A stretch of 64,000 nucleotides of DNA from Trissonchulus latispiculum. Lineage: Eukaryota; Nematoda; Enoplea; Enoplida; Ironidae. Made by a program: the position numbers and the translations under genes. Position 1 is the first letter of the stretch, and each line of letters starts with the position of its first letter. Below, one piece after another: positions 6,645 through 35,747 of this stretch. A model generated the notes under the pieces. That model was not told the origin of the DNA, did not search any database, and saw only the letters and a list, made by a program, of their open reading frames with translations. The stretch is from NCBI GenBank assembly GCA_030248195.1, contig JASAND010016630.1:88095-152094 (forward strand), read 5' to 3'.

Positions 6645-7838
6645 TTAAGGGGGGGGCTACTAAAGGTTTGCCCGACTTTGTCCGATTGGCCTACTTTTTG
6701 GCGAGGATATAGAGCATGGGTGTGGTCAAAAAATATCGGGTACTGAGATCTTAGTTGCCTTCCAGCCATGTGCAGCCGTCGCGTTTATGTGTCCGGCGTC
6801 CGACCCCCATTTTTCGCAACTACCAACATAGTTAATAAAAAATTTCTACTGACTGCTAGGCCCAAGCTTCAAAGTTGTCATTCGCCGATGTGATTTGGCA
6901 CCTGTGCCCCTATCTCTAGAAAAATACTAGATGTATCTTATCTGCATCTGAGGGAATTACTCTTCAAAGTTGAAGTTTCGGCAAAGATTTAAAAAATTTT
7001 GGCTAACGAAAGGAAAATTTTATTACTGGTGCGAGGTATAATGCTGTAATTTGGCATAAAAGGAGGCGCTATAGGAGTACTCATTTGTGCCAAATGGCAA
7101 GAAATTCTGCCGCGTGAAAAAATTTTTATGTCAACTTTAGTCTTCAAAAATTTCCTAAAACGCCTTTTTTGGGGAATGGTAGGAGCCCAGAAATCGAAAA
7201 CATCAAATTTTTTGAAATCAAAATTTTTTGAGATATTTGAACTCAGCGAGGTCGAAAACACCCCCACAACAGATTTCAGCTCGATTAGTGAAGGTTTGCG
7301 ACTTCTATGGCTGCAGAAAGCCTCTACACAGGATCCGACAGACTGAAAATGGCGGTTTCGGCAATTTTTGAAGATTAAAGTTGACAAAAATTTTTTCACT
7401 AGGCAGAATTTCTTGCCATTTCGCACAAATGAGTACTCCTATAGGGCCTCCTTCTATGCCAAATTACAGCCTTATAGCTCGCACCAGTAATAAAATTTTC
7501 CTTTCGTTAGCCAAAATTTTTTAAATTTTTGCCAAAACTTCAACTTTGAGGAGTAATTCCCTTAGATGCAGATAAGATACAGACATCTAGTATTTTTCTA
7601 CAGGTAGGGGCATATGTGCCAAATCATATTGGCGAATGACAGCTTTGAAACTTGGGCCTAGCAGTCAGTAGAAATTTTTAATTAATTATGTTGGTAGTTG
7701 CGAAAAATGGGGGTCGAGCACATAAACGCGACGGCTGCACATGGCTGGAAGGCAACTAAGATCTCAGTACCCGATATTTTTTGATCACACCCATTCTCTA
7801 TATCTTCGCCAAAAAGTAGGCCAATCGGACAAAGTCGG

Positions 7839-8388
7839 TGTGAAGTTTGACTATACTGATCTTAGTAAAAATGCTGCTGTCTGACTTTTACTCTCTAGGA
7901 TAAGACTAAACTACAGGTAACAACAGTGGTGTGTGATGCTGGAGCAATGTTCGGACTTGACCAACTACCAGACGACGAAATAATTACAACGGTTTATTGT
8001 AATTTAGACAAAGACTTCACGACGAAACTAGAACAGATCATAAATTTCAACCACAAATCGTAAACTTGACAAAATATTAAACTAAACATAAAATGCCCAG
8101 AAAAAGCCGGCTGAGCGACAGATCAAACTTGATTAAACACCCCAAAACAACTTTACCCAAAGTTCGGGCCCAAAGCTTGCAACCCAACCGTTCCTGACGA
8201 AACTTACACCCACTCTCACTTTCTGACCAACCCAACATGGAGGATTACAACTATTAGCTATCCGAACCTACGAATTTAGACAAGAGTAATGCGAAAAGGT
8301 TGAACGTTTGTCAAATGAAATGTCATTTTCACTTAGGCTTAGCAGCACATGAATAATTTATATCTTTCCTGCCGGTGCTAACTTCACA
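7839..8388 (-). repeat. 3' LTR of retroelement 1
   Basis: This 550-bp LTR is nearly identical to 14991-15540. Its ends are TGTGAAGTT and AACTTCACA, a 9-bp terminal inverted repeat. It is preceded by TCGG target sequence. Confidence -1.
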
Positions 8389-8406
8389 TAATACCCCCTC
8401 TTTTGG
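8389..8406 (-). promoter_or_regulatory. Polypurine tract of retroelement 1
   Basis: On the minus strand GGCCAAAAGAGGGGGTATTA abuts the 3' LTR start TGTGAAG. A purine run at this spot is the expected plus-strand primer for LTR elements. It fixes the element's orientation as minus. Confidence -1.
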
Positions 8407-11237
8407 CCCCGGGCGGCCTCGGACGGGTCCACTCAGTTAGACAACTTGATAAAAAGGATGTTACTCACAGGTACCTTAGGTACTAGTAAAGGTAAAACTT
8501 TGGTGAAAATTACGTAAAGATAAAAGTAAACAACTGCGGGAACATACACCATACCACGGTTGAGCACACAACTTTTTAACATGCTAACCGGCCGACGGTA
8601 AAACTACTCGAAACTGAATCGAGACATTTTTGACAAACTACTACAAAAACTTACTTACCTACTCAAAACCTACGTAAAATTGTAAATTCCCGCCCGAGCA
8701 CACCCAGGTACCAAAAGAGTAGGGAGCACCGACAGGAAACAACAGCAGAAATAAGAACAAAAACCCAATATTGTAAATATATATGTGACAAGAGAAATTA
8801 TTATGCATAGAAGTATTAAACAAAGGTAGTATAGGCAAGAAATCAAAAAATTGTACATGTAAGTAGCAGCCAAAATGGAATGAAGTAGGATTAACAATGC
8901 CAGACAAAAATACTAGATTAGTAAAAATAAGAAAAGAAGAAATAGTGTCATCAAGAAATTGTAGTATTCGAGGAAAAAGCGGAGAAAATTTGAAATACGA
9001 AAGAAGCATAAACCGTGTAACCGTATTTAGTAGAAAAACAAACAGAAAAGAGATAGTGAAAAACTAACTATACCGACACCGACAGTTATAACGGATATAC
9101 CGAGGTGGCGAGCGCCCTGACAAAAAGAACAGAAAATGTCGTCAATTGAACCCCAATTTTAAAATTTTATCCCTGCGGCTCCCTCCTAACAATCACAACC
9201 ATTATACTAGAACCCGAAAGAAATACCAATCATCAAAACACAGATTAAACAACAGCAAAAATCACACAAAATTTGGGTGGGGGGACAGTGTCACAGGTGT
9301 GCAGAAGATGGGACACATGCGGTTTACTCCCCAGCACCGCAGACGATGCAATTCCAGACCGTAGACTGTCACTGAGCCACGAGTCCGTCCAGCCGGACCC
9401 TACCAGATCGCACCGTACCAGGCCTCGAAGGGTCTCCTGTCAAAGTTCACCAAGTCCAACCCAACCAAACCAGGACCAGAGTCAAACGGGACTGGGACCA
9501 GGCACAAATTTATGGCCAAACGAGCCGTGCACCGCCTGGCCCAGCATCCCCATGGCGGCAGGTAGACCGGAAAAGGTTCACAAAGGCCAATAGGCCACCA
9601 GGCAAAGGCAAAAGGCCCCCAAGCCTTCCCAAAGGCCGGAAACCAGCGACCAAGCCTGACCAAAAGCCGACAAGATGGCAGACGGAAGCAGGCAAAATGA
9701 GCCCGCCCCACGGCAAAATAGGCAGGAGAGCCACCAGCGCCAAACCGACCATGGCACCAGTCACCAAAGGCAACCAAAGGACGCAAAGCGCCCCAACAGT
9801 CTAGAAGGCCAAACCAGGGAGACCAGCCAGCAATGCTCCCCAAAGATGGAACTGGTGAGCAGTGGAGACATGCCCACCGACGCTGAAAAATGGCCGGAAA
9901 GCCACAGGCAAAGCACTGGGCCGACCACCAACCCAGATGGAATCAAAGCAACGGGCGCAAAACGTCCAAAGAGGCGACCAGCCACGGCCACCACCACATG
10001 GGACCAAACCGAATGGCCACCACACAAAAGCATTGTGCGGCCCAAAGTCAAAGCCGACGGCCAACCAGGCCGAAATAATCCCCGGATGTCCAGTCAAACA
10101 ATCCAAAGACCAGGCCATGGTCGGAGCAGACAGTTCAAGAGGCCTGGCAAGAGAAGAAACCAGTAGGAACCCAGCACCAGCAACTACCGACCAGTCACGG
10201 CGGTACCCGACCGCGCCAGAACCAGCGCCGAAGCAAATGGCCGGAAAATCCAACCGAATCCAGCTGACACTTTTCCTGGGGAGCACACCCGGCACTGAGG
10301 ATGGGGGGTCGGCACCGGCATAGCAGACAAAAGATTAGCTAAAACACACAAAAACAAAAATTAAGGCAATCAAATAAAGCACAGAAGAATCATGATTAAT
10401 AAATGGCAGAATTAAACAAAACAAAATACTGACGAAACATAGTTACAGCCCCACCTATGACTTTAGTAGCTCCAGAGCCAATGGGAGAATCGCAGCCCCG
10501 GTATGCGGAGGAGAAACCCCATAGGCCTGTGCTTATCAAAGAGAATCTCAAGGCTAAACTAAACGAAACGGAATCAAAAAGTAAAAAGAATGTTAAGGAG
10601 CGTGCGGCCCACCTCACCCGGTATGCGGAGACCGGAGCGGCCCGCAACTTAACACTCCAAAAGCGAGTGTGAAAAATGTAGGAGCACCAAAAATTAAAAG
10701 TTGTAAAAAGTTAAAAAGAAAAATCCAATCTGCTGTGTGGAATTTAGAAAATCAACGAAAAGCAAAAATTGAAGTTTATTCCAGTAAGAATGTGAAAGTC
10801 AAGCGAAATAGAATCGAGAAAGACAACTTTAAAGTACCAAGGAGAAAAATCTATACGTACTTAAGATCAAGAAAGAGAAAGAAAAAGTGTGAAATCGTTT
10901 ACGAAACTCAAAGAATCCAAAGAATAAAATACTCAGATGAACAAAAGTTTATGAATTAAATCGGAAAAGCAGAGAAAAACACGAAATTTATCAAGGAAAT
11001 CATCTAAAAGAGTCAAAAATAGAACGACATGCGTCAAAAATCAAGTAGAATAACCCACACAGCAGATAAAAGTTAGACATAAAAATAGTAAAAAGAAAAG
11101 AAAACGGAAGAACCCCCACCCCCCATGGTAAAACAGTAAAGATAAGAGAAAAAGATAAAAAACTTTTAAGCACTGATTTTTAGCACCAACCCGTACAGAA
11201 AGGGGCAAAAATATACACAGGAAAACTGCATGAGAAC
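8407..11237 (-). other. Internal non-coding region of retroelement 1
   Basis: Between the NADAR ORF stop and the polypurine tract lie 2.8 kb without a convincing gene. The 9280-10330 part is GC-rich with frequent CCAAAGGC-like words. Both strands stay open there because the plus strand is poor in T, giving Gly/Trp-rich minus and Gln/Pro/Lys-rich plus translations with no family resemblance. The 10340-11230 part is A-rich on the plus strand. A pol gene would be expected here in an intact element, but none of its motifs is visible. Confidence -1.
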
Positions 11238-12578
11238 TTAGGGCGGGACGATCTTACCGATCGCCGCCCGATGGGCCCGCTGCCTCTCATTCCAAAGTTG
11301 TTCCATTTCACGATTTAAATTTGGAAACAGTTCAGCGCGCAAAATCATCATAACCTTTCCCAACCAATTGCGGTTCTGCTGTTGATGCACGCGAATAACT
11401 TCACTGGTAATTTGATTTGGAGACAAATTGTCAATCTGTTTTTTAGTCAAACCAATTCCCCAATACGGGTCACTGGTAGCTTCAACCAGCAGTCGGCAGC
11501 CAGAATCGCGCAAAAAATCAACAAAATCTGGGCAAGATTTGGCCTTGGCACGCAGGACTTCAAGCATCACAAACGCGCGCACGTGCATGTCTTTACCTTG
11601 CCACAATTTGCGAATAACTGAGTCAGGTGGCAGCCAACCCATAATTTGTTCAGCAGCGAATTTGCAATAAAACGGATTCAAATACTGCGCGCAAGCTTCA
11701 GCGGGGGCATGCCAGCAAGCAAAGAAGAAAAGTTTTCGAAATTGGTAAGCTTGCTCAGATGTTTGAAAGTACAAACCCCACAATTCAACCCACCCGTTTG
11801 CACCCGGGACCTTTTTCGGTTCAAGACGAAACATGTTAGACGCCGGGTCAAAAGCACCTTGAAAACGAGCAATCGGATGAAAATAAGGAAAATTAGACGC
11901 GCGCATCAAAACATGTCCCAAACACTCATCAGTGACCTCCTTGGCCACCTGAACCATTTTCTTGGATCTTTCTGCCCAAACCCTAAGCAAATCTGCCGAC
12001 TGCTGGAAACGCGAAACAGATGGATAAATATTCAAAAATGGAAAAAATCGCGTAACAAGATCAGCCAGCGCAGCAACTTTATAGGGCGCAAAACCAACAA
12101 CCTGAAAAGATTCAAAAAGAACTTCGTCATCGCGCAAAATAGCTGGAAATTTGATGGAAAGTTTCCAATATTCGGGTTCTTCCAACTGAATACGATAGGA
12201 AGGGTGAGACACAGGCTCCAATTTATCCCACGTAATAACAGGAATAGCGTCAGACAAAAGAGTTCGTATAATGCCAAAATAATTTTCCATCGCAAAGTCA
12301 GTCAGTGCAAATGGAGCGTGTTTCAAATTTTTCAAATAGTGATCCCAGTATTTGAAGGAGCTAACAAAATAAGGATTCAAAAGCAAGGGATCCAATTTGG
12401 AAGAAAAATCAGGCAAGGTTCTCCCTGTCCAAAGAAAACCCACTACGGTGTGTAATGTGTGGCGGTGGATCAGCATGAAAACGTGGAACCGCTTTTTCGA
12501 CCAAATAACGCGCAGAATATTTATACAAAAGTTGCTTCGAATTTGCAGGATGGTCCCAAGGGGCCGCCGAACATTCAA
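11238..12578 (-). CDS. NADAR (YbiA-like) domain ORF of retroelement 1
   Basis: The ORF has 446 codons. Residues about 255-415 match the NADAR/YbiA (DUF1768) fold: SEQAYQFRK at 274-282, a middle W..GKDMHVR..VM segment near 325-338, LVEATSDPYWGIGL at 364-377 and NRNWLGKVMMILR at 402-414. The SEQ..Y.K, vEa..D.yWG.G and LG..lM..R patterns are the family signature. Known NADAR proteins act on ADP-ribose-linked or riboflavin-pathway N-glycosides, and some bacterial members remove ADP-ribose from guanine in DNA. Residues 1-250 are not recognised. ORF 2 upstream overlaps by 170 nt in another frame, and its C-terminus continues naturally into this frame near residue 55, so the intact protein was probably one fusion. 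The offset equals +1. The domain call is firm; its role in the element is inference. Confidence -1.
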   Translation of the reverse strand: MNVRRPLGTILQIRSNFCINILRVIWSKKRFHVFMLIHRHTLHTVVGFLWTGRTLPDFSSKLDPLLLNPYFVSSFKYWDHYLKNLKHAPFALTDFAMENYFGIIRTLLSDAIPVITWDKLEPVSHPSYRIQLEEPEYWKLSIKFPAILRDDEVLFESFQVVGFAPYKVAALADLVTRFFPFLNIYPSVSRFQQSADLLRVWAERSKKMVQVAKEVTDECLGHVLMRASNFPYFHPIARFQGAFDPASNMFRLEPKKVPGANGWVELWGLYFQTSEQAYQFRKLFFFACWHAPAEACAQYLNPFYCKFAAEQIMGWLPPDSVIRKLWQGKDMHVRAFVMLEVLRAKAKSCPDFVDFLRDSGCRLLVEATSDPYWGIGLTKKQIDNLSPNQITSEVIRVHQQQNRNWLGKVMMILRAELFPNLNREMEQLWNERQRAHRAAIGKIVPP

Positions 12579-13896
12579 ACTGCTGATTTAGACTCGCAAA
12601 AGACAAGAAATGTTTCTCAGGCCACTGAATCGTGGGAGACGAGGGCAAAGTTGCCGAGTCCCTCAGTGAAAAAGTCTGTAAAGGGATGTCCAATTGCACC
12701 GGAGGCAAATGTTCATCTCTGTGTTGTGGAAAATCGCGTTTAGCGTACTTCGGATCAGTCGAAAGAGGTTGGGAGGCTTCCTGAGGCTCCGCAGATGCAG
12801 AAGTCCCAGGTTGTCCAGATGTGGACGAAGCCTCGTCCGAGCTAAAACGCACCGTAGCACGTGAAGCCGGGACTGAAGAAGAACGAGAAGGGCGATTTGT
12901 GCCCGGAGTAGGAGCAAACATAGGGTCGGGAGTCAATCCCAAACCTGCAGATGGAGTGCCGGCAGGCGGGACGCCCCCTTGCTCCGGAAAAGTAGAACCT
13001 GGAAAAATAATTTGCAAAAGTTGAGTCAAAGAAAAATCAGCACGAGACATCAAAACATAAACAACTTCGATAGCGTCCCACGGAGCTGGATGACCAATCC
13101 AGACTGACAAAAGTTCCTTAGAAAAACCCAAGGAAGCAAGGAGCGCAAATTGGATATCTGTAGAAATTGGAGGCATGCGGTGCCAAAACGCATCAGAAAA
13201 AGAAGTTCGCGCAGCAACGGGTAATGAGCCCAAACCTGGCGTACGAAAATTTAAGTGTGGCATATACCACTCAATCTGTGACTGAGCCGCCTGTTGTAAA
13301 TTCGGCTGATTTTGCACGTTCCAGATAGGGACTGTAGGGGTAGGGGAAGGAGAGGTAGGGGCGGACTGGGAAGCAGGACGGGGGAGGGACATACGTAGGG
13401 GACAACTCATACGCGGCTGAAAAATAGGTGTAGGCGTCGGCTGATTTCGTAAAAACTGAAAAGAGTCACTAAAAGTAGGAGGGCGCAACACCCCTGTTTG
13501 AGTAGAAATCACCGGTGAGGAAGTAGACGTAGATAAATTTAAACGTGGCGGAGCCGGCCAAGCTCCAAGTGGAGCCGGAACCGGCTGTGGCGATGGCTCA
13601 ACGGCCATTTGCCCCGCCAGAGAAAGAGAATCAGACACTAAATTTGCAGGTAGCAAAACTGAAGCATAACGCGGGGGCCCTTGTTCGGCCTGCACCGGCA
13701 GGACCAACTGAACACAGGGCTGATCCAAATTTACCAAGGAAAGAGAAGAAGTTTCATTTGAGTGAAACACTACATCACCCAAGGTAGCTGTCGAAACACT
13801 AGTGACCGATGGAAAAAGTTGATCTATAATTTCTTCCTGAGAAAGAGAGGTGGGAGGGGGAGGGGCAGGAGGGGCCGAGGAGTCCTCGGTCTCCAT
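12409..13896 (-). CDS. Middle ORF of retroelement 1, Pro/Ser-rich
   Basis: The ORF has 495 codons. It opens with METEDSSAPPAPPPP, runs through Pro/Ser/Thr-rich sequence (about residues 100-200 and 300-390), and has better-ordered stretches around residues 235-300 and 410-480. I see no zinc knuckle, DTG protease or reverse transcriptase motif. Its end, rich in Phe/His/Pro, is continued by the NADAR ORF after a frame change near 12420. Its start overlaps ORF 1 in the -1 frame within a C-rich run (13824-13960). By position it may be the capsid or linker part of a gag-like polyprotein; that is inference. Confidence -1.
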   Translation of the reverse strand: METEDSSAPPAPPPPTSLSQEEIIDQLFPSVTSVSTATLGDVVFHSNETSSLSLVNLDQPCVQLVLPVQAEQGPPRYASVLLPANLVSDSLSLAGQMAVEPSPQPVPAPLGAWPAPPRLNLSTSTSSPVISTQTGVLRPPTFSDSFQFLRNQPTPTPIFQPRMSCPLRMSLPRPASQSAPTSPSPTPTVPIWNVQNQPNLQQAAQSQIEWYMPHLNFRTPGLGSLPVAARTSFSDAFWHRMPPISTDIQFALLASLGFSKELLSVWIGHPAPWDAIEVVYVLMSRADFSLTQLLQIIFPGSTFPEQGGVPPAGTPSAGLGLTPDPMFAPTPGTNRPSRSSSVPASRATVRFSSDEASSTSGQPGTSASAEPQEASQPLSTDPKYAKRDFPQHRDEHLPPVQLDIPLQTFSLRDSATLPSSPTIQWPEKHFLSFASLNQQFECSAAPWDHPANSKQLLYKYSARYLVEKAVPRFHADPPPHITHRSGFSLDRENLA

Positions 13897-14966
13897 AGGG
13901 ATAGCAACGGAAGGGGCCGGGGAAGGAATGGGGGTGGGGGAATGATGTTGACCGAGGGAAGGGAAGAGAAAGAGGACGTTTGCGTAGAAAAAGGCTCAGT
14001 AAGTGGCTGAAAATTTTCGGGGCCTAGACCCGGAGTGCTGCAGGCAGCACCCTCCTCGCCGACAACCGCAGCCGGCTCAGGTGGCACCGGAGGCAAATCC
14101 CGCTCAATGCGGGACGGAGTCTCCGCACCAGAAGAGCCGACCTGCGATGGCTGAGCCAGCGACGAAGAAGGGCCTACGAACACCGCCGAATCAGAAGGGG
14201 ACTGATTTTCTTCTGCATAAACAACATGGAAAGCCGCTGCCGGCTGATTTGACTGCTCAGAAAGAGGGGAGCGGTTAACAGAGGGGATAAGGGGACGGAG
14301 CGGAGTGGAAGGGAGGGACGAGTCCCCAGCTGGAACTTCCTCCTGAGACGGTGGACGAGAAGACGGTTCCCATTTTGGAGGAGGCGTTTCCGGTCTGGGC
14401 TCATTTTCCTCATCCGAAGAATTTGAAGAGACATCCAGAATTTCGGAGGGAAATCCAAAAGCCAAAAGGCCAAAAGCTTTATTCAACATCTGAGAATATG
14501 ACGGTCGTGGAATTTGTTGTGTACTGGAGGCCGAAGTTTGGGGCTGGGAAGAACCCCCCGCCTGGGTCCACTGGGGGGGGGGGGTGGACCTCTGCAACTG
14601 ACCGGAACTTGAGCCATACAACATGGAATATTTTGGTTTCGCCCAGAATTTTCCCCCCAAGTTTGCAAGGGAATCGTAGTGGGGATATAGGGGATCCCCC
14701 AATTTCGGTAGGGCGCCCCCCCCCCGAGTTCCAGGTGGAACCCCGTCTTGGAGGGGCGGATCAGTATATTCCCCAAGTTCACGCGGGTCCCCCCGATCCA
14801 TAACTGGGGCCTGCTCACAACACTTCTGTCGCAAAACTAAATCGTTGTACTCATCCGGATAATCAAAATTTTGTAAAAATTCAAAAAGCCGTTGAATATC
14901 TTGAAGTCGATCTTCCAAAGCACGAAAAAATTTTGGGTCAAGACCGTCACACTCCTCCTCCAACAT
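13824..14966 (-). CDS. First ORF of retroelement 1, gag-like position
   Basis: The ORF has 380 codons and its ATG lies only 5 nt past the primer-binding site, so there is almost no leader. The N-terminus (MLEEECDGLDPKFFRALEDR) is acidic and probably helical to about residue 55; the rest is Gly/Pro/Ser-rich and probably disordered. No known domain is recognised. It ends in a proline run where ORF 2 takes over in the -1 frame. A C-run indel, an assembly error or programmed slippage would all fit. I saw no textbook slippery heptamer at this junction. Confidence -1.
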   Translation of the reverse strand: MLEEECDGLDPKFFRALEDRLQDIQRLFEFLQNFDYPDEYNDLVLRQKCCEQAPVMDRGDPRELGEYTDPPLQDGVPPGTRGGGALPKLGDPLYPHYDSLANLGGKFWAKPKYSMLYGSSSGQLQRSTPPPQWTQAGGSSQPQTSASSTQQIPRPSYSQMLNKAFGLLAFGFPSEILDVSSNSSDEENEPRPETPPPKWEPSSRPPSQEEVPAGDSSLPSTPLRPLIPSVNRSPLSEQSNQPAAAFHVVYAEENQSPSDSAVFVGPSSSLAQPSQVGSSGAETPSRIERDLPPVPPEPAAVVGEEGAACSTPGLGPENFQPLTEPFSTQTSSFSSLPSVNIIPPPPFLPRPLPLLSLWRPRTPRPLLPLPLPPLFLRKKL

Positions 14967-14970
14967 CTAC

Positions 14971-14988
14971 CACATGACACGGTCGCCA
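14971..14988 (-). promoter_or_regulatory. Primer-binding site of retroelement 1
   Basis: Two bases after the 5' LTR the minus strand reads TGGCGACCGTGTCATGTG. TGG followed by the complement of a CACGGTCGCCA tail fits priming by a tRNA-Arg-type 3' end. The exact tRNA is an inference. Confidence -1.
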
Positions 14989-14990
14989 CA

Positions 14991-15540
14991 TGTGAAGTTT
15001 GACTATACTGATCTTAGTAAAAATGCTGCTGTCTGACTTTTACTCTCTAGGATAAGACTAAACTACAGGTAACAACAGTGGTGTGTGATGCTGGCGCAAT
15101 GTTCGGACTTGACCAACTACCAGACGACGAAATAATTACAACGGTTTATTGTAATTTAGACAAAGACTTGACGACGAAACTAGAACAGATCATAAATTTC
15201 AACCACAAATCGTAAACTTGACAAAATATTAAACTAAACATAAAATGCCCGGCAAAAGCCGGCTGAGCGACAGATCAAACTTGATTAAACACCCCAAAAC
15301 AACTTTACCCAAAGTTCGGGCCCAAAGTTTGCAACCCAACCGTTCCTGACGAAACTTACACCCACTCTCACCTTCTGACCAACCCAACATGGAGGATTAC
15401 AACTATTAGCTATCCGAACCTACGAATTTAGACAAGAGTAATGCGAAAAGGTTGAACGTTTGTCAAATGAAATGTCATTTTCACTTAGGCTTAGCAGCAC
15501 ATGAATAATTTATATCTTTCCTGCCGGTGCTAACTTCACA
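14991..15540 (-). repeat. 5' LTR of retroelement 1
   Basis: This 550-bp copy is nearly identical to 7839-8388, with a few substitutions by eye. It is followed by the duplicated TCGG target and the last 26 bp of the foldback element. Confidence -1.
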
Positions 15541-15689
15541 TCGGGGCAGGTCGATTTTAGTAGCCCCCCCTTAAGGATTAAGTTAACTATGTATAAATTT
15601 ATGTCTATTTTTGGACTAGGAATGGAAATTTTGTTGTCAGTAACACAAACGTGACGAATGGAATAGAATATTTACAATTGCAATTGTTT

Positions 15690-16695
15690 TGCAGCGGGGC
15701 TAGTAGGTTTTCCTACGTACTAACACCGTTACCACGCCCTGACGTAGCGGACGCGGAGACCGTGGCACAGATGGATAACTGACCGACTACAGGAGACGGT
15801 CGGGACAGCCTCGCCAGATAATACACGCAGGGGTAATCCGATCCTAAGGGCGAGATGACTCGCACTCTCACTCACTCAGAATTGAACTACCTACCTAGCA
15901 GGAGCTCAGAAATACTAAACCTAGCTAAATACACTTTAATAAAGAACAAGAATAACAAGTTATAGTTAATAACAACACAATAATATAATACTGGGTCGAA
16001 CCCTCAAGCAAACACAAACAAACAACAATTATAACTTACAGTTACAGGACGGTTGGGCGGACCAACCAACGTACCAAATGCTCTGGGGAGAGCTGGGAGA
16101 GACACAGAATATATACAGAAATCAAAGGGGGAGAAATAGCGTTGATAAACACAAGCGTTCACAATGACAGAACAATACAAAGTGATGGGGGGAAGCGAGT
16201 GTTTTGTTGGACCCTCCCACGAGCGCCCCCTAGTGGAAATTTCCCCCAATCACGTAGCTCCCAAAGTCACGAGGGGGGAACCCACCCAATCCCACGTATA
16301 CACGTTGGGGGAGCTACGTGACTTGCAAACGTTTCCCAGCCCAAGGTGATGACGATATATGAAGCCAAGCGGGTAGCTATGCTAGCTACAACCGCCAGCA
16401 ACGAAAAGGTTGACCGTGTGTCACCTTAATCCGTTACATCTCCCCAGGGCTCGCCATCCGAACTCCCGAGAGGATCACTGCACAAATGGCGAACTGGTAC
16501 GTGAGCTGGTCAAACACAGACAATACCGAGCAATGATGCTACAAGTACAAAACCAACACAACTGATAACTGCAAGTTATAAACTCCAGACTAACTAGTCA
16601 AAACTAACAACAAGTGTAGAAAAAACACAAAGAAACAAGTGATTAAATACTACATAGTACAGGTGATTAAGCATATACTAGGCACCATGAGATGC
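15690..16695 (-). repeat. 3' LTR of retroelement 2
   Basis: This is a direct repeat of 34739-35742. It starts TGCAGCGGGGCTAGTAGG and ends CACCATGAGATGC on the plus strand, and holds an inverted pair CACGTAGCTCCC...GGGGGAGCTACGTG (about 16252-16320). The outer flank TGTTT matches the other side of the element. A minus ORF at 16004-16249 has no support as a gene. Confidence -1.
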
Positions 16696-19370
16696 TAGCA
16701 ACAGTCAAAAATTAAAGCACAACATGACAAAAATTATGCATAAGTATTTGGCCAAAAATACACGTATTAAACTAGAATCGTAAAAATTACTGGGATCGTA
16801 AGTAGCTTGAAAAAATGAAAATACAAATGACTTTCCAAAGGTAACTCATGGGAAAGAGGAGTTACCCTCCTTTGGAATGTATAGTCAAACGAGTGTGTTA
16901 ATAAAGGTTAACAAGAGATAAGAAGTTGAACTTTCAGATAAAATATTAATTAAATTTAAGTTAAACCAAGCTGAGCTAGGGTTTATCAGGCCGTCGCTCA
17001 ACAAGGCAAACTGCCTATGATAATAATAATCATAATAATAAAATAACCATAGAAAATACACACCGTTAGGTGGAGGTCCTATGGGAAGAAAAACCCACCC
17101 TCCCTAAGTGAAATTTTGTATTTTCATATGACGAGAATCGTCACTGGGTTTTTCGACAAAAAATGGCATAGATATATATGGCAGTATACTAAGGCAAATG
17201 GAATGATTCCTCAAAAAGAAAGCAATGACATTGGCATATAAAACTAGCAGAAAAATATTTTTAGATTAACATACGACATAGTTATAGCAAAAACACAGGT
17301 TCAACAACTAACTATGAAAATTCTAAGTTCGCAAACTAACAATAGGTAATCTGATCCAACACGCGTGGAAACTGGCTGCCTTTTCGGAGAAGTTTCAGAA
17401 GTTATGTGAAATTATTTTTAGATTATTCCAACAAAAGACTTGAGAATTTAAAAATTTTTCTCCCATTGTATAAAATTGTCTTTGCTCCAAACAGTTTGGG
17501 TAGGAAACAAAGCAGTGTAGCAGTAGCTTGATAGATTCGCCGGTAGAATACTCGTCATTAAAACAGTGGCCAAGTAACAGTTTTAGTGTGGAATAGTTAA
17601 CGTTTAAGATTTTATACACGCTGCTGCTCCTCTTCGATTGTCTATAATAACAGTTCTGTCGATTGACTCAAATTTGTGTACTGTTTCAAATGGACGTTCA
17701 GCTTCGGCATTTTAATCTCGGTCATGTATTGACTTAATGACATTAATTTCGGTGGCGCTGTGTTCTGTCTCCTTAATCTTTTGTTGAGGTAATTAAAAGA
17801 CAATGGCAGCCATTTAAAGAATCAAAAGAATATGTGTGCTGTGCCAAATACAAAAGTATGGAAATTCATGGATTTTGATACAGAAATTTTCCGAAAATGG
17901 TTGGACATGGAGATGAAACCTTAGCTGTCTGGTTTTCAAATCAAGGATAATTCGTGTCATATCTCTAGGATAAAGCTAAGACTGCTTAAATTTGCATTAA
18001 TATTGGTACTTCTAACTAGTTACTTAGATCTTCTAGGTTAGGTTGAATTAAGGGTCGGAGCCTGCAAAGCCCTAAGTCAAGATCTAAAACTTTTTTTAAG
18101 TAATAATTGCCCATACAATCATAAAGCAATAGGCATGGAGGGTGAAAAAGGTCCCTCTGTGTCTATTGTGAATAATAAAATAATCTAATTTAAAATATTT
18201 TAAGTGAACAATTTTATGCTTAATAAATGATTTCAGTAGATATCAATAGGAATAATATTTTATCTGGTTTTGTTAGACATTAGACCTGGAGGGCGAAGAA
18301 GGTCCCCCAGGGTTTTTGTTAATTTAGTGAAGAATTTTCATAAAATAATAACCACATATTAATTATACTTTGCATAAAGTAGGGCTCATGACATAATTTA
18401 CGCAACACATTAGGCTGATCAGATTGAGAGAAGGTACCATATGCATCAATCGGCCGCAAACATGAAATTTTGGATCCTACGGATCCGGCAATTAAAATTT
18501 TACAATTTGTGTCTTTCAAGCATCTTGCAACTCAAAGTGCTCTGTTGTCGGCTGACAACAGGAAATTGATTATTATCGGAATGGCACCTCGGTGCCAAAA
18601 TATCCCCCTAATTGTATTAGTACTTATCCGAGATTTTCAAGGAGTTGGCCAGTCAAGGGGGGGAACCCCTTTGAATGGAGCTAACGGGTGTCCACGATGC
18701 GGTGAAAGCTGCGTGGCCACTTCTGCTCCGGCAGTAGCCTTGCCTTTGCCTCGGGTAATTGCGATATGCAATTATTCAGTGCCATACCGTGGACCCAGTA
18801 CAAAATTTGGTGTGGCACTACCCCTCATCGCGAAAGCAACTGGGGTGTGGCACTAAGGGAAAAAACTAACAATACAAAATAATACCAGTTCGTATAAACT
18901 AAACACAGAGAGTACAGGTTCGTAGAAAAATTTAGACAAAGAGATTAAATATATATATTTAAGGAAAACTAAAGAAAACGTACGTACATAAAATTTAAGC
19001 ACGTTGCACATAACAGAGATTTAGGTCCTAGGTAACGAGAAATACAATTCAAAAAACAAAACAAAACAAGAAACTAGATTCCAAATTCGAGACACCAGAT
19101 TCGTAAGTTACAGTTCAAAATAACATAAAAAATAGGCTAAGTGTCACTATCACAAAAACAGCTAAAACAAAGATCTATATAGCGATCTGGATCCGAAGAT
19201 CGATAGAGAAAAAGTCAAATCCAGTTTCCAGCATCGGATAAACCGTCATCATGGTGGGCGACATGGGTCAAGTCCAAGGGATGCCAGAAATAGTCACAGG
19301 CAGAGGATCTCATTGCCAAGAAAGATGACTTTCCGGACTGCAAATAGTCATTTCTGATGGAATGAACGGA
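16696..19370. other. Non-coding 3' region of retroelement 2
   Basis: This is AT-rich sequence between the 3' LTR and the last accessory ORF. It contains inverted word pairs such as GGTAACTC...GAGTTACC near 16841-16871. It also has a repeated word of the form GGAGGGYGAARAAGGTCCCYC at about 18137 and 18289. I see no gene. Confidence -1.
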
Positions 19371-20643
19371 TCAGGGGCCATGAGGCTCGATGACGACGCA
19401 CTCAATATTCCCGCATGAACAGCTCAGTGGACCTATGGTGGTCACAAGGATGGGGTCCAACGGGTTCCAAATGGTTAGGCCAAAACACGGATGGAAAATG
19501 TTCTTCTCTTGACCTTTCGGAGCACAACCGGCTATATGGACACCGGTCCAATTCGTATGCATGTCAATCGGCTGATTGCGAAGAGCTGCCGGTGCGTCCT
19601 GCCGAAAGAACGGAGGTGCGGGCAAACCACGATTATAGCGCTCCGCCGCCGCTTCAATGCGCTTACGAACGACATTGAGGTAGGCTTCAAGACGAGCGCC
19701 GGCCAATGGGACACGGGTGAACCGGTCCTCCCAGAGCTCATCAGGGCCCGCCTGCATAAACCAAAGGCCCACCTCGGTGTACAAGGACCCTTGGATATTT
19801 TGGCCATTCCAGTTGATCGTATTGAAGAGGAAGTTATGCTTCCCATCAAAAGTCAGGTCGTCAGGTTTGAACCCATGGGGAACCCGAACACCTAGACCCA
19901 CCAAGAGTCCGCGGAAGCCTTCCCGTAGTAACTTCCGATGGTTTGGACCAGGAATCCTACATTTCCACGGACTGATAGAACGTGTAGAAAATAATCAGCC
20001 GCTGGGTAAGCTGATCAGGACCCGACTGCCATCGCTCGATGCGACAAGCGGGCAGTGCAGCGATGGCTTGATCAGTGCTACGCTTGATAGCAAAGCCATC
20101 CTGATTGGGATGCTTCCTCACAAGGTCCATGACGACATCAGACTGGCAAAACCAGCCTTTTCGCCCCTGATACAGGTGCTCCTTGGTCCGAAACCCTTGA
20201 TTCTCTAGCTGCTCCACCGGCAACGACACATGCGGCAGATGATTGTGCATGAATGAGAAGGCATAATCCGGCCCCAGATAGAAGCACAGGAAATAGCCTT
20301 CGTCGACATTCGTGATGCCCTCGACGTTGGGCCGATGATAACCAAGCATGGCCTGACGGACCGTCATGCAGCGGGTCCGTAGACGACGGGCATGCATGTG
20401 GGTGACGTAGAAGTGCTGTGATTCGTACCGTCGAATCAGGTGCGGGTACCGAAAGAGTTCGGGCACCAACGCTGCCATGGCCAAGCAAGTGGCCCATCGT
20501 GCGTTTGACGACACGCGGTTGACGGGGAAACCTTTAAAGAGTTTCCCGTGACGATCACGATAGTCCTTGATTACCCACTGCGAATGCCAGACAGTTCGTC
20601 CGCCTGTCTGCTCGGATTTCGGATTTGCCGTTGTGAAAACCAT
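19371..20643 (-). CDS. Accessory ORF IV of retroelement 2, unrecognised
   Basis: I place the start at 20643 (MVFTTANPKSEQTGG). The frame is open for 228 residues to a stop at 19957. In the shifted frame, coding resumes across that stop (SPWKCRIPGPNHRKLL) and runs to 19371, so the original protein had about 420 residues. Visible features are a basic His/Arg-rich middle (THMHARRLRTRC), aromatic-rich segments (FLFNTINWNGQNIQG) and a C-terminal LSCSCGNIECVV cysteine motif. There is no signal peptide or clear membrane helix, so it does not look like an envelope protein. I do not recognise the family. It is the last ORF before the 3' LTR. Confidence -1.
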
Positions 20644-20796
20644 AGTAGTGTCAATCGAAAATATAAAAAAGAGCTTTAGATTAGATTTTGAGTGTGATCT
20701 GATACGAATACTCAAGTGGTTGCTGCAGGTAGTTGCAGCTTGTGATGTTGTGGAACATTGTTGATTAAAGCCGACGTGTATTTGCTGCTAAGGGCT

Positions 20797-23606: not shown

Positions 23607-25280
23607 TCAGCCTGGGTGCGCATGATTCCAGAAGGGTCGGTTGAAATGTGCCCTGTTGACGTTGGGCATCTTCGTCCGTTGGCGTCGGTTCGCGACGTTC
23701 GACGCCTTCTGATGGCTGGCGTCCGCCGCGTATTCTTCGTCGGATAGCTGAACGACCTCCGGTTCTTCAGTTTCCTTGGCCAGATTCGCCGCCTCCTGCT
23801 GACGAACCGAGGACCTCGTTCTGCGTGGGCTCGTGGTGACCGCAGTTTGCGCCGGCTGGGATGACATAACGGTGACCACCAGAGTAGGTCACCGGAGGCT
23901 TCTCTTTCTTCCTTGGGTCACCAGTCCCTTCCTTGTAATGAGTCAATGGTGGAAGCTTCTTCGGCAAGGGCGGTAACTTCGTCTCCTTTTCCCGTCGTTG
24001 GGCAGCCTTTCGTGCTTCCACCAATGATTCCGGCTCGTCGGCCACCGTCTTCTCATTGGGAGGGGTGGATGACCACCCAGACTCCTCATCTGATGGTTGA
24101 TCGTCCGTTCGCAGAAAACGATGGGCCGAATCAGGTGGTAGGTCCGTTGAAGTGTCATTCGGATCCGCGTGATGATGGCGATTTTCGACGATCGCATACC
24201 AGTTGAAGTCCAGACCTTCATCACGTCGTCGTTTGGTCATGAACTTCAGTTCGTAGAAGTTGGTCAGCAACTCCATTAGAGGCACCCAGGAAACCTCTCG
24301 CAAGGGGTGGGTAGCATTACCACCCTCCGCTTCGTGGACAGACAATGACCATGCGAAGCTCCCTTTCAGGTACTTCACTGATCCACGTTTGATTGTCAAA
24401 TTCCGTCGGCATTCCATCTGACGGTCATGAAGAGTCTGCGAAGCCGCGTGCTTTCCAGGGGTGAACATTCTGGCCTGGGCAAGTGGGCCTATTCCCAGTT
24501 CCGCTTCCTTGTTGATCTTCGGCCACAGATTTGGCGAGAAGGTGTACCGTACACTGCTCAAGTAGACCACCTGGATCCACTCGTCCGAGGCCAAGGCATT
24601 TGCGACCTTGACCAAGCAGGCATAGATCGCCAAAATGTCAGCGAGGGCGTACGTTGCTTCATCTACGGTAGGCCAGACCATACACCCATTAAAGTCCAAT
24701 GGTCGCAGTCCTTTAGGAAATGGCACATCGCAGTATTCCCAGACCTTACTCAGGGAGTGATGAGTGTTGACGTACGAGTCCTTGGTCGTGTCGGTGATAT
24801 TTTCCCATGGGACCTCAGGAACCGACGGATCTTGTCGTCGTCGAGCCTGAATATAGGGAACAGACTGGGCGACGATCGCTCCAAGTTCGGCTGCATAGCT
24901 GTCCATGCCGGTGAGACCACAAAATTTTTGGCCAGACGTAGAAAGTCGGCCTGACCACCAGCAAATACCATATAGACTGGCTCCGGTGGTTGAAGAATGA
25001 TCTTCAGGGCATAAAGAACCGCATAATAATCCGTAAGTGATGCCAGAATTTCGCTGACCATGATCATAAATACCTTCGGATGTCGTGATGGAACTGGTCC
25101 AGCGATCTGAATGATGGTAACAGCGGCATCCTGTTTATTGCCGAACTGAGTGTAAGAGCCGCCTTCAATATCCATAGCGATGACGCCAGTCGCTCGATAC
25201 GTTTCCAGGCTGTCCGGAATCGCATCGAATAGACCCTGGAGGGTTCTGATCAGCTGTAAAGGTTGAAAATGGTCCGGCAA
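23607..25280 (-). CDS. Accessory ORF II of retroelement 2, DEDDy 3'-5' exonuclease
   Basis: Two overlapping frames make one exonuclease. The first (from 25280) has motif I AMDIEGG (D37, E39) and motif II GGQADFLRLAKNF (D112). The second (from 24906) has RPLDFNGCMVWPTVDEATYALADILAIY with motif III Y86-x3-D90. This order and spacing fit the RNase D/WRN/EXD2-type DEDDy fold, which removes nucleotides from 3' ends with two metal ions. The frames join by a -1 step exactly at minus-strand A_AAT_TTT (24927-24921), giving LAKNF then CGLTGMDSYAAEL. After residue 230 of the second frame the chain is low-complexity and changes frame again near 23850. The first frame is also open upstream of 25280, so it may fuse to ORF I. 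The domain call is fairly firm; its role in the element is unknown. Confidence -1.
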
Positions 25281-25282
25281 AG

Positions 25283-26950
25283 TTAGATGACTTTGCTGAA
25301 CTGAAATGACTTCTCCGGGTTAGCAATCGCCTGAACGTCACTAATGGCTTCCGTAAGGCAGGCTTCTGGATGTTGAGTGTCGTACTCCTTCTCCCTGTTC
25401 GTGAGCACCAACTTCAGATAGTGCTCGAAGGTCGCGATGCCAGAGAGGTGTTCCTTGGCTCTTTCTTGCAGATTACCAGGAACTGCCTCGATCTCTTCTC
25501 GTGATGGAAGTTCGTAGCTGAGAGCGGTGGCCCTCTCCTGTGGTGTCATCAGAACCATATGAGGATAGTCCGGCAGGACATGTTCGTGCCCTTCGAGGAC
25601 CAATGGAACGCTCTGGGCGACGTCGTCCATTCCTGCCGCTAACCGTGGCGATGATGCGTCGAACGCTCCTGCCACTTTCGCCAATGAGCCGTCGGTGTCT
25701 TCGTTGGCTTCGTCAACCACCATGAGCTGACCGGCTTTCAGTTGAGCATCGGCCACTTCACCCATGGGGGCCTTCTGCAGGGTAGAATCGCTAGCCTTTG
25801 GTGGTTGGTCGGCGTCCAGGTCCACCAGGACGGGTTTAGCCGATGACGGCCCCGCCTTTTGCTGTTTCGCTGCAGAACGTTTGCTTTGCTTCGATGGTTT
25901 TCGTGATGGCTCATCAGTTTCCGTAGCAGAGTGAGCTGACTGGGCACCACTAGAGTTCTTCCTAGAACCACCACGGTTCCTCTTCTTCGATTTAGAAGTA
26001 GTAGATGCTGACCGAGATGACTCGGCAACCGAAGAAGCAGCATCTTGAGAAGCTGGTGATTGATCATGGATCTTCTGTAGAACCAACAGCTTCTGGCTTT
26101 GTAGAAAAGCCATTTGAGCCTCAATGTCCTTGAGGGACAAATTTGATCCAATCCCTGGATTAAGGGGGGTAGTGTCTTGGCTTGTTCCCGGCGCGCTTGT
26201 GGAACAAGTTGATGGTGGACTGCTCCTTCTAGCTAAAGCACAGGGCTTCTTCCCGTTGGGAGCCGAGCTCCGAGTGTCCGAATCTTCATCAGCGTCGCCA
26301 CTGGCAGCAACTGCCGACCGCTTGGTTCCCTGGGACGTCGGACCGACAGGATTCTGATGTTCGGGCTTGCCAGTTGGGATAGGGACCTGGCGTCCATGGT
26401 CTGTACGGTGGCCTGTCGTCGTGGCCGGGCAGTCCTGCGCTGCAGTCGCTGGGTCGTGGCCAACAGAGCTGAACTCTGTAGGCTCGCCAGAGACCTCAGG
26501 CAAAGACTGAGGATCCATCTGCCCGGGGTTAGATGAACCCACTGGGGATGGGGCTTCCGGTTGGCCTCCCAGACGTGATGACACGCTGGAACGACCCGTG
26601 CCCATCCGATTTTCGTCCGAGGCGACCACGGCACTGTACGAGTCCGAGTCCTGGATTGAGACGGGATCCAATTGTTCGAACAGTTCCGATAAAGGGCTCG
26701 CTGACGATGCGAGCACCTGGTAAGTCTCGGACACACAAGGGGGTACCACTGCATGCTGTCCCATGGGGGGGGTCAGATCCCAAGTCCTCGACCACGGATT
26801 TGGGCTCCTCTGGAGGGGGAAACTGCTCCAAATCCTCGGTGTCCGGCGCCTGGTCTTGGGCTGAACCCTCACCAACCATAGGATCGTGTCCGCGCCTCTG
26901 CTTTTTCTTGAACTGCAAATGCATGGTGACTTCTCCAGATATAAGCACAA
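25283..26950 (-). CDS. Accessory ORF I of retroelement 2, Ser/Lys-rich
   Basis: The ORF has 555 codons. The true N-terminus is probably in another frame (MHLQFKKKQRRGHDPMVGEG from about 26924), switching to this one at a G run near 26765. The middle has a short probable coiled coil (LKDIEAQMAFLQSQKLLVLQK, about residues 274-294), then Ser/Lys-rich basic sequence (SKSKKRNRGGSRKNSSG). A helical C-terminal domain follows (PREEIEAV-like, ERAKEHLSGIATFEHYLKLV). I recognise no family. The stop at 25283 lies right before the exonuclease ORF in the -1 frame, so a longer fused product is possible. Confidence -1.
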   Translation of the reverse strand: MCLYLEKSPCICSSRKSRGADTILWLVRVQPKTRRRTPRIWSSFPLQRSPNPWSRTWDLTPPMGQHAVVPPCVSETYQVLASSASPLSELFEQLDPVSIQDSDSYSAVVASDENRMGTGRSSVSSRLGGQPEAPSPVGSSNPGQMDPQSLPEVSGEPTEFSSVGHDPATAAQDCPATTTGHRTDHGRQVPIPTGKPEHQNPVGPTSQGTKRSAVAASGDADEDSDTRSSAPNGKKPCALARRSSPPSTCSTSAPGTSQDTTPLNPGIGSNLSLKDIEAQMAFLQSQKLLVLQKIHDQSPASQDAASSVAESSRSASTTSKSKKRNRGGSRKNSSGAQSAHSATETDEPSRKPSKQSKRSAAKQQKAGPSSAKPVLVDLDADQPPKASDSTLQKAPMGEVADAQLKAGQLMVVDEANEDTDGSLAKVAGAFDASSPRLAAGMDDVAQSVPLVLEGHEHVLPDYPHMVLMTPQERATALSYELPSREEIEAVPGNLQERAKEHLSGIATFEHYLKLVLTNREKEYDTQHPEACLTEAISDVQAIANPEKSFQFSKVI

Positions 26951-27560: not shown

Positions 27561-28550
27561 TTAATGTAACGGCTGGGTTGGAACTTTGACTGGCCGTTCA
27601 TGATATGGCTTGATCTTCTCGATGTGAACCACATCCGGCTTGTCCTGTGTTCCAACTTTCTGGATTCGGAAGTTGACTTCCGACATCTTCTTCATTATTC
27701 GGTAAGGTCCTTCCCATTTTGGTCTCATCTTGGCACACATACCGGAAGGAGTTACTCCTGTAACTTTGCGCATCACCAGCATCCCGCGCTTGTAGTGGAC
27801 CTCCTTGACCTTCTTGTCAAAATTTTTCCTATTCTTCAGCGATGACGCTTCCAACAACTCACGAGCCGCCTTCCAAGCTCGCTCCAACCGGAACAGATGG
27901 GATTGTGAGTAAGAATCATAATTCTCCACCACCTCATCATTTCTACCATCGAAGAAATGATCCAAAGGCAACCGGATGTCGTGTCCAGTCATGAGGAAGT
28001 GAGGCGTGTCACCCATTGAACTATGAACTGAATTCCTATATGCGCAAAGCGCCCAGTTCACATAGTCGTCCCAATCCGTTTGGTAGACATCCGCATACTT
28101 CATGAAGATGGTCCGGAGAGTCTTGTTCATTCTTTCCACCACTCCATTAGCCTGTGGATAGTAAGCCGTAGTCCGCTGAAGTTTAGATCCACTAAGCTCG
28201 GACAGTTTCGTGAACAGCTTTGACATGAAATTTGGTCCACAGTCCGACAGCAAATGCACTGGAACTCCCCAACGAGCGACGAATCCGTTGAAGTAGTAGT
28301 AGGCCGTCGTTTCTGCCTTCTCTTCGGGCATCGCAAATGCCTCTGCATACCGCGTAAAATGGTCGATGACGACCAAAATACAGGTATTGCCACGAAGGGT
28401 CCGGTTCTTCGTGCAATGCATTACATCCAGACTGACCAAATCCAGAGGTCTGTTGGCACGGACTTCATTTTGCAATCCAGCTTGAGGCCTGGCCGGGCCT
28501 TTATTGAACTTGGCACAAACCTTGCAAATGGCAAAGTAGGCACTAGGCAC
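27561..28550 (-). CDS. Ty3/gypsy-type integrase (N-terminally truncated pol)
   Basis: The piece has 329 codons. The catalytic core shows LVSLDVM (first Asp), LLSDCGPNFMS (second Asp) and NGVVERMNKTLR (Glu), the D,D-35-E pattern of retroviral-type integrases. CKVCAKF near residue 8 is the CxxC half of the HHCC zinc finger; the His pair is lost with the upstream deletion. The C-terminus keeps a KWEGPYRI...VVHIEKIKPYHER segment typical of gypsy integrase tails. The core is intact over its whole length, unlike the rest of pol. Integrase inserts the cDNA into chromosomes. Confidence -1.
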   Translation of the reverse strand: MPSAYFAICKVCAKFNKGPARPQAGLQNEVRANRPLDLVSLDVMHCTKNRTLRGNTCILVVIDHFTRYAEAFAMPEEKAETTAYYYFNGFVARWGVPVHLLSDCGPNFMSKLFTKLSELSGSKLQRTTAYYPQANGVVERMNKTLRTIFMKYADVYQTDWDDYVNWALCAYRNSVHSSMGDTPHFLMTGHDIRLPLDHFFDGRNDEVVENYDSYSQSHLFRLERAWKAARELLEASSLKNRKNFDKKVKEVHYKRGMLVMRKVTGVTPSGMCAKMRPKWEGPYRIMKKMSEVNFRIQKVGTQDKPDVVHIEKIKPYHERPVKVPTQPLH

Positions 28551-28971
28551 CTCCCATCTTATTCCTAGAAAATGGTGATTATGGTGATGGTACTGAAATT
28601 ATATATTTCATCCACATAAGCAATTAACTTTCAATTTTCAATAATCACAAAAATTAAAAAAATTAAAATTGGAATTAAGCCCTTTTGCAAAGCATCATAA
28701 GGGATAATAACAACTAAATTTTAAAAAGTTAAAATAACTAAATTGGAGAAGTACAGTAAATATTATTTGGACATCTATACTGAATAAAGTCTCAATTGTT
28801 TAGAATCCAGCAAGTATATACAATTAATTCTAAATAAAATCCACAAGACCGCATAGACACATTTTTTAATATATCAACGTTCGCTAAAGACATAAAGCAT
28901 TGCAAACTTTCCCATTACAGCAATTGGATAAAACGTATAACACGTGACTATCCAGAGCATATTTTGTGCAT
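28551..28971. other. Non-coding filler where RT and RNase H should be
   Basis: This AT-rich sequence with no ORF sits between integrase and the pre-RT linker. In an intact gypsy-type pol, about 1.5-2 kb of reverse transcriptase and RNase H would lie between these parts. No YXDD or RNase H motif occurs here or elsewhere in the element that I can find. Confidence -1.
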
Positions 28972-29443: not shown

Positions 29444-29452
29444 AGATGGCTG

Positions 29453-35742: not shown

Positions 35743-35747
35743 TGTTT

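What the first reader, a model, noticed from the sequence alone, without database searches (positions are those of the whole stretch)
11238..14966. An LTR retroelement carrying a NADAR (YbiA-like) enzyme domain
Seen: SEQAYQFRK, LVEATSDPYWGIGL and NRNWLGKVMMILR at the C-terminus of an ORF between two 550-bp LTRs, with primer site and polypurine tract in the matching orientation. Known: NADAR proteins process ADP-ribose or riboflavin-pathway N-glycosides, and some reverse guanine ADP-ribosylation of DNA. Inference: the element may use it to undo host ADP-ribosylation of its nucleic acid, or as a domesticated structural part. I do not know of a described retroelement family with this layout, but I could not search.
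Basis: partly seen in the sequence, partly recalled or inferred. Interest (0 to 1): 0.87.

Follow-up and report, generated by a model that had tools for sequence, protein, structure and literature searches.

The report
NADAR enzyme in giant LTR retrotransposons
A family of large virus-like jumping genes in an unnamed eukaryote carries an extra protein ending in an enzyme domain known elsewhere for removing ADP-ribose from DNA, and selection has preserved that domain; the copy in this window is a shortened, broken member.

Summary
Two 550-bp LTRs (7839-8388, 14991-15540; 6 mismatches), a TCGG target duplication, a primer-site-like and a polypurine stretch enclose minus-strand frames ending in a NADAR domain (Pfam E 2.8e-11, above cut-off). 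This copy is a deletion derivative: the start of ORF1 is joined to the last two thirds of a second ORF, and pol is gone. Full-length relatives span about 17.7 kb: LTR, ORF1 with PR-RT-RH-IN (Ty3 type), a 1.7-kilocodon ORF2 in the env position, long 3' region, LTR. ORF2 has a DEDDy-exonuclease-looking region (motifs only) and a C-terminal NADAR. I found four lineages: A (the window's) and B (above cut-off), C and D (below it); D is the 20-kb element next door. dN/dS over NADAR is 0.07 within A and within B. Catalytic Glu, Lys and Glu are unchanged in all A and B copies that read them and in both C copies; D lacks the second Glu. NADAR is already reported in Ectocarpus Gypsy Pol and oyster Tx1 ORF1, and DEDDy ORF3s in bdelloid LTR elements. 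An env-position ORF with both was not found in my searches. Best mechanism: a hydrolase removing ADP-ribose from element nucleic acid; that step is inferred.

The parts
7835..7838 (.). target-site duplication TCGG, left copy
   Evidence: read from the printed flanks
7839..8388 (-). 3' LTR of the element (element sense is minus)
   Evidence: 550 bp, TG...CA ends, 6 mismatches to the other LTR
8394..8404 (-). polypurine tract AAAAGAGGGGG, 5 nt before the 3' LTR
   Evidence: the same stretch in C8755 (A) and C9249 (B)
8405..11237 (-). long 3' region in which I recognised no domain; matches lineage A copies as DNA
11238..12419 (-). ORF2, C-terminal part (codons 1323-1721 of the relative on contig C8755), ending in the stop codon
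11328..11810 (-). NADAR domain (residues 257-417 of the frame): E275, K282, E366, D370, W373
   Evidence: residue roles from PMC11543638
12420..14456 (-). ORF2, middle part (from codon 588), Pro/Ser-rich; frame broken inside; 185 bp of the relatives missing at its 3' edge
14468..14966 (-). start of ORF1 (gag position, about 166 residues) joined to ORF2 by a large deletion that removed the rest of ORF1 and the first 587 codons of ORF2
14971..14988 (-). primer-binding-site-like TGGCGACCGTGTCATGTG, 2 nt after the 5' LTR; tRNA partner not identified
14991..15540 (-). 5' LTR
15541..15544 (.). target-site duplication TCGG, right copy
15690..16696 (-). 3' LTR of the neighbouring 20-kb element (lineage D)
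   Evidence: 98.5% to 34739-35743
19374..20715 (-). lineage D NADAR-like C-terminus, split over two frames (19960-20715 and 19374-19904)
   Evidence: the window frame itself gives no Pfam match and none with the A-C profile (E 1.6); an uninterrupted relative (L058) gives PF08719 E 2.6e-5, 25 bits, below the 35.1 cut-off
23770..25319 (-). lineage D exonuclease-like region (DIEGG; YALAD), split over two frames
   Evidence: profile of the A-C regions finds 24753-25319 at E 3.6e-4, 14.9 bits (next window frame E 0.3; best shuffled frame 4.3 bits); second half by eye
27564..28550 (-). lineage D integrase
   Evidence: rve 2.1e-9; Integrase_p58_C 2.8e-12; 34% to the lineage A integrase piece
34739..35743 (-). 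5' LTR of the neighbouring lineage D element

Best explanation
This is a non-autonomous, internally deleted copy of a giant Ty3-type LTR retrotransposon. Full-length relatives encode ORF1 (gag-pol) and, in the position where retroviruses have env, a second protein of about 1,700 residues with an exonuclease-like N-terminal region and a C-terminal NADAR domain. Shown: the anatomy, the family, the domain, selection on it, and the preserved catalytic residues. Inferred: the protein is made during the cycle and travels with the element's RNA/cDNA particle; there NADAR hydrolyses ADP-ribose put on element nucleic acid (or its protein coat) by host ADP-ribosyltransferases, while the exonuclease-like part trims or binds 3' ends. 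The pair would be a nucleic-acid clean-up module that protects reverse transcription from a host block. My confidence in the identity is about 0.95; the number below is for identity and mechanism together.
For: NADAR match over cut-off. 103 matches in the genome, the window's own included (95 scored of 1,413 candidates), 13 of them in uninterrupted frames of 1,694-1,727 codons. Full-length architecture. dN/dS over NADAR 0.068 (A, 120 pairs of 16 copies), 0.075 (B, 6 pairs of 4 copies), 0.155 between A and B with dS near saturation. E275 and K282 are kept in 30 of 30 A loci, E366, D370 and W373 in 29 of the 29 that reach them, and all five in 4 of 4 B loci. The two C copies keep Glu, Lys, Glu and Trp, with the Asp one column earlier. 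The equivalents E43, K50 and E125 contact ADP-ribose or matter for guanine de-ADP-ribosylation (PMC11543638, section 12 read). NADARs of several eukaryotic RNA viruses are proposed to counter host ADP-ribosylation (PMC9503650, passages read).
Against: No activity data. The arginine that contacts the pyrophosphate in the solved oomycete NADAR (R79) aligns with Glu in A and B, and A/B carry three stretches of about ten residues absent from the NADARs of L001 and L007. Lineage D has Lys where the second catalytic Glu should be, yet 28 of 150 D rows lie in long open frames. No DarT-like guanine ADP-ribosyltransferase in the genome (0 candidates). The exonuclease reading rests on motifs: no Pfam or relevant PDB match, and hhalign to E. 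coli RNase D fails. The single-sequence fold is uninformative (mean pLDDT 37.9).
Confidence: 0.45

Rival explanations
1. NADAR as a non-catalytic nucleic-acid- or ADP-ribose-binding part: ORF2 is a structural or RNP protein whose NADAR and exonuclease-like regions are used as binding modules.
For: Lineage D keeps the domain without the second catalytic Glu in long open frames; the R79 equivalent is lost in A/B; catalytically inactive DEDD nuclease derivatives that keep RNA binding are known in animals (Maelstrom, EXD1, as stated in PMC5408684, passages).
Against: The catalytic Glu, Lys and Glu are unchanged in all A, B and C copies examined that read them. In A, NADAR is more constrained than the region before it (0.068 against 0.125), though in B the two are about equal (0.075 against 0.081).
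Confidence: 0.3
2. NADAR acts on small ADP-ribose derivatives (signals, NAD-capped or RNA-repair by-products) rather than on macromolecules.
For: Proposed for many viral, chiefly phage, NADARs (PMC9503650, passages); the ORF2 proteins also match TIGR02464, riboflavin-intermediate N-glycosidase, at E 1e-8 (A) and 3.3e-11 (B), below its cut-off.
Against: Residence in a retroelement and linkage to a nuclease-like region point to nucleic acid; the TIGR02464 scores (35.6, 43.7) are far below its cut-off of 73.7.
Confidence: 0.17
3. A one-off capture of a host NADAR gene by this copy, without function for the element.
For: Only the broken frames of the window copy.
Against: Four lineages, open frames, dN/dS near 0.07 in A and B, LTRs only 50-55% identical between A and B.
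Confidence: 0.01

Closest known systems
Ectocarpus Gypsy families with a YbiA-family NADAR (e.g. Gypsy-12_Ec32), PMC12477816 (passages read)
   Same: Ty3/Gypsy LTR element carrying a conserved NADAR; the authors suggest processing of RNA intermediates
   Different: [quoted passage not shown] here it is at the C-terminus of a separate ORF after pol. Brown alga; chromodomain integrase; the word exonuclease does not occur in its main text
Tx1 LINE ORF1 proteins of the Pacific oyster with NADAR-like domains (same paper)
   Same: NADAR in a retroelement protein other than pol
   Different: Non-LTR element, ORF1 position; sequences not compared here
Bdelloid Juno/Vesta LTR retrotransposons with a DEDDy exonuclease ORF3, PMC5408684 (passages read)
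   Same: Env-position ORF with a DEDDy-type region; ORF3 types shared between unrelated retroelements
   Different: The word NADAR does not occur in its main text; the bdelloid ORF3 was identified by HHpred, mine by motifs only
DarT-associated and stand-alone NADARs, PMC11543638 (section 12 and passages) and PMC11125620 (passages)
   Same: Glu/Lys/Glu-type active site and the D..WG block
   Different: Free-standing or toxin-linked bacterial/oomycete proteins; here part of a mobile-element protein, with extra stretches and R79 replaced in A/B

Membership tests
Ty3-type LTR retrotransposon | paired LTRs with TG...CA, TSD | tested here: met
   window. Of four full copies whose flanks were printed, a TSD is clear in one (C9249, ACAG) and not seen in three (C8755, C5245, C611)
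Ty3-type LTR retrotransposon | PBS and PPT in the right places | tested here: met
   the tRNA that would pair was not identified
Ty3-type LTR retrotransposon | PR-RT-RNase H-integrase order in pol | tested here: met
   in a full-length relative (L047, L039); absent from the window copy. A gag domain is only hinted at (Retrotrans_gag E 0.071)
Ty3-type LTR retrotransposon | RT phylogeny within Ty3 | not tested
   no tree made; assignment from domain order and Pfam families only
NADAR superfamily (PF08719) | profile match above the curated cut-off | tested here: met
   window 44.4, A 41.6, B 47.0 bits against 35.1; C 27.6 and 24.9 and D 25.0 fall below it
NADAR superfamily, YbiA subfamily | catalytic Glu, Lys and last-strand Glu | tested here: met
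   A, B, C; not met in the D copy read (Lys for the last Glu)
NADAR superfamily | ADP-ribosyl hydrolase activity | not testable with these tools
   needs protein
DEDDy 3'-5' exonuclease | DxE, (N)xxxD, YxxxD motifs | tested here: met
   invariant D82, E84, D176, Y280, D284 in 5 sequences of three lineages (A3); motif definitions recalled, found by eye
DEDDy 3'-5' exonuclease | significant profile or fold match to the family | tested here: not met
   profiles; fold not tested. I therefore call it exonuclease-like, not a member
Retrovirus with env | ORF after pol encoding a membrane glycoprotein | not tested
   position matches; no Pfam env family in ORF2 at E 0.1; transmembrane prediction not run

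The most novel reading that the evidence does not exclude
A lineage of giant LTR retrotransposons evolved an env-position protein that joins a 3'-end nuclease to an ADP-ribosyl hydrolase as a counter-defence against a host system that ADP-ribosylates the element's RNA or cDNA. The large number of NADAR matches in this genome, some in unrelated mobile elements, would be the trace of that arms race.
Probability: 0.25. Interest if true: 0.88.

Novelty: new variant of a known kind. Interest (0 to 1): 0.62.

Why it matters
The physiological roles of NADARs in eukaryotes, animals included, are described as unclear (PMC11125620, passages). A retroelement family that keeps a NADAR active site under strong selection offers a concrete, testable job for it, and would suggest that hosts mark mobile-element nucleic acid with ADP-ribose. 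The co-occurrence with a nuclease-like region, and NADAR in other kinds of mobile-looking loci of the same genome, extend the idea of a shared pool of accessory ORFs among retroelements.

Tried and rejected
Rejected: single host-gene capture. Rejected: one intact ORF across 11238-14966. Rejected: LTR divergence as a clock for the full copies; LTR pairs of C8755, C5245 and C9249, whose ORF2 frames are open, differ by 76, 41 and 74 mismatches, and in C9249 60 of the 74 fall in one 180-nt block. Led nowhere: protein database searches with the window frame and with alignment A4 (no hit at E 0.01); viral-contig scans with A4 and A3 (0 confirmed); PDB and Pfam for the exonuclease-like region; hhalign to E. 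coli RNase D; single-sequence fold, so no fold search was run. The RNase D homologues listed were too alike to make a useful family profile and were not aligned. The A4 profile does not find NADAR in the window's own D frame (E 1.6) and is weak on the open D relative L058 (3.1 bits; 1 of 481 scored shuffles, of 1,000 made, reached it); Pfam is the better evidence there. The exonuclease-like profile on L007 (4.3 bits) is no better than the best shuffled window frame (4.3 bits). No dN/dS control on decayed copies was run. Host species not identified. Literature: eight searches of the held library.
Full report
Observation. Between two 550-bp LTRs (7839-8388 and 14991-15540; 6 mismatches, no gaps) lie minus-strand frames, the last of which (11241-12578) ends in a NADAR domain: PF08719, E 2.8e-11, 44.4 bits, cut-off 35.1. 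The flanking TCGG is a 4-bp target-site duplication; TGGCGACCGTG follows the 5' LTR and AAAAGAGGGGG precedes the 3' LTR in the minus sense.

What the copy is. The stretch is not one gene. Compared with relatives, 14468-14990 corresponds to the start of ORF1 and 11238-14456 to ORF2 from codon 588 to its stop, with 185 bp missing near 12420 and the frame broken once more inside. The rest of ORF1, with all of pol, and the first third of ORF2 are deleted. So this is a non-autonomous derivative; its own LTR pair differs at only 6 of 550 positions.

The full-length family. Searching the genome with the NADAR frame gave 103 matches (95 scored of 1,413 first-look candidates), which, a few short pieces apart, fall by eye into two groups: about 57-96% identity (A, the window's) and about 49-55% (B). 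Three A and ten B matches lie in uninterrupted frames of 1,694-1,727 codons. The LTR as DNA gave 40 matches scored of 925 candidates; on C8755 and C5347 the LTR pair spans about 17.7 kb. I read six copies in two pieces each; one of them (C236) begins on its contig without a 5' LTR. From the 5' LTR: a long ORF1 starting just past the primer site, with aspartyl protease, RVT_1, RNase H, zinc-binding and core integrase matches in the A copy scanned and only a hint of gag (E 0.071); then ORF2; then about 2.8 kb; then the 3' LTR. Frames are broken in some: ORF2 in C5347, ORF1 in C611. A and B are 66% identical over 2,450 aligned ORF1 positions, while their LTRs are only 50-55% identical.

ORF2. Pfam at E 0.1 sees only NADAR in it: E 2.1e-10 in A and 4.2e-12 in B. 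Nearer the N-terminus is a region with the DEDDy exonuclease motifs: DVEG/DLEG, NxxxD or GxxxD, YxxxD, and LQFAV/LIQIAV, invariant at the acidic positions in five sequences from three lineages. No profile search confirms it, so I call it exonuclease-like. A search with this region gave 117 matches (110 scored of 581 candidates) and a third lineage, C, at 34-35% identity: ten rows, six of them in open frames of 1,696-1,790 codons. Two C copies read at the C-terminus match NADAR at E 4e-6 and 2.8e-5, below the Pfam cut-off.

The neighbour. The 20-kb element 15690-35743 (LTRs 98.5%) belongs to a fourth lineage, D. Its integrase is 34% identical to A's. The A-C exonuclease-like profile picks out its frame 24753-25319 at E 3.6e-4 and 14.9 bits, the next frame in the window being E 0.3 and the best shuffled frame 4.3 bits. 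The same test with the NADAR-region profile fails on the window's own D frame (E 1.6), as does Pfam. That frame has 150 scored relatives of 674 candidates, 28 rows in frames of 2,324-2,412 codons. One of them, read at its C-terminus (L058), matches NADAR at E 2.6e-5, 25 bits, below cut-off. In it the first Glu and the Lys are kept (KEHLYQGRK) and the D..WG block too, but the second Glu is Lys. So both LTR elements of this window carry this kind of ORF2, the D case on weaker evidence.

Selection. Nei-Gojobori counts on 16 A copies, the window's included (of 30 A loci; the 14 others were dropped because the matched frame had stops or fewer than 370 codons), give dN/dS 0.068 over NADAR and 0.125 over the region before it; 4 B copies give 0.075 and 0.081; A against B 0.155 and 0.216 with dS near saturation. 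E275 and K282 are unchanged in 30 of 30 A loci, E366, D370 and W373 in the 29 that reach them, and all five in 4 of 4 B loci. In the two C copies Glu, Lys, Glu and Trp are kept and the Asp stands one column earlier. By the solved oomycete NADAR (8bau, offset by two from the paper's numbering by my reading) these are E43, K50, E125, D130 and W133. In PMC11543638 (section 12 read) substitutions at the E. coli equivalents of E43, K50 and E125 abolish antitoxin rescue, and those at the K50 and E125 equivalents impair hydrolysis in vitro; for E43 it depended on the substitution. R93 is also kept in A, while R79 is Glu in A and B.

Mechanism. Shown: the domain is part of an element protein, under strong constraint, with its catalytic residues. 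Inferred: it hydrolyses ADP-ribose from element RNA, cDNA or particle protein. The alternative of a binding module gains from lineage D. The genome has no DarT match (0 candidates; the control rang in 1 of 14 genomes), so a host enzyme to counter would be another ADP-ribosyltransferase, such as a PARP; I did not search for those.

Known work. NADAR in Gypsy Pol of Ectocarpus and in oyster Tx1 ORF1 is in print (PMC12477816, passages). DEDDy ORF3s in bdelloid LTR elements, shared with Penelope-like elements, are in print (PMC5408684, passages). My searches of the held library (listings seen) showed no paper on an env-position ORF with both; Repbase and most subscription papers were not searched. 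Hence new variant of a known kind.

Wider setting. The NADAR profile gave 2,478 first-look candidates in the genome, the 150 scored all at E below 1e-32. Of the eight with loci I read four. They fall in two contexts: an A32-like ATPase ORF and a TBP-like ORF beside NADAR (L001, Pfam; L004 by likeness), and an ORF of about 690 codons with NADAR at its end (L007, L008). The LTR-element copies that I scanned score at most 47 bits, against 124 or more in those 150 rows.

Noticed in passing
L001 and L004 (contigs C8936, C803): High-scoring NADAR ORFs (E about 3e-41) sit between a Pox_A32-like ATPase ORF and a TATA-binding-protein ORF (TBP E 9e-37, L001), as recalled for Maverick/adintovirus-like DNA elements. 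L002, L003, L005 and L006 score alike but were not read.
   Followed up: partly
L007 1-1938, L008 1-1938 (contigs C8717, C4104): A frame of about 690 codons with a D-x-E start (LDTEGLD, exonuclease-like by eye only; the profile score is no better than shuffles) and a canonical NADAR end (E 2.4e-41, L007), followed in L008/L056 by a kinase-like ORF (by eye). No RT-like frame of 100 aa or more seen in the 5 kb of L056.
   Followed up: partly
LTR pairs of the C8755, C5245 and C9249 copies: 5' and 3' LTRs of copies with open ORF2 frames differ by 41-76 mismatches, in C9249 mostly in one central block, although LTRs should be identical at insertion; gene conversion, recombination or assembly chimerism.
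   Followed up: partly
window 28551-29455: The neighbouring lineage D element seems to lack most of its RT: under 1 kb lies between the frame before RT and the integrase frame (by eye).
   Followed up: partly
window 6672-7838: Large inverted repeat: arms 6672-7169 and 7346-7838, 92% complementary, ending next to the left LTR; perhaps a foldback element that the LTR element entered.
   Followed up: no
window 58404-59013: Self-complementary stretch of about 610 bp, 95%, with pieces 80% like 7189-7286.
   Followed up: no
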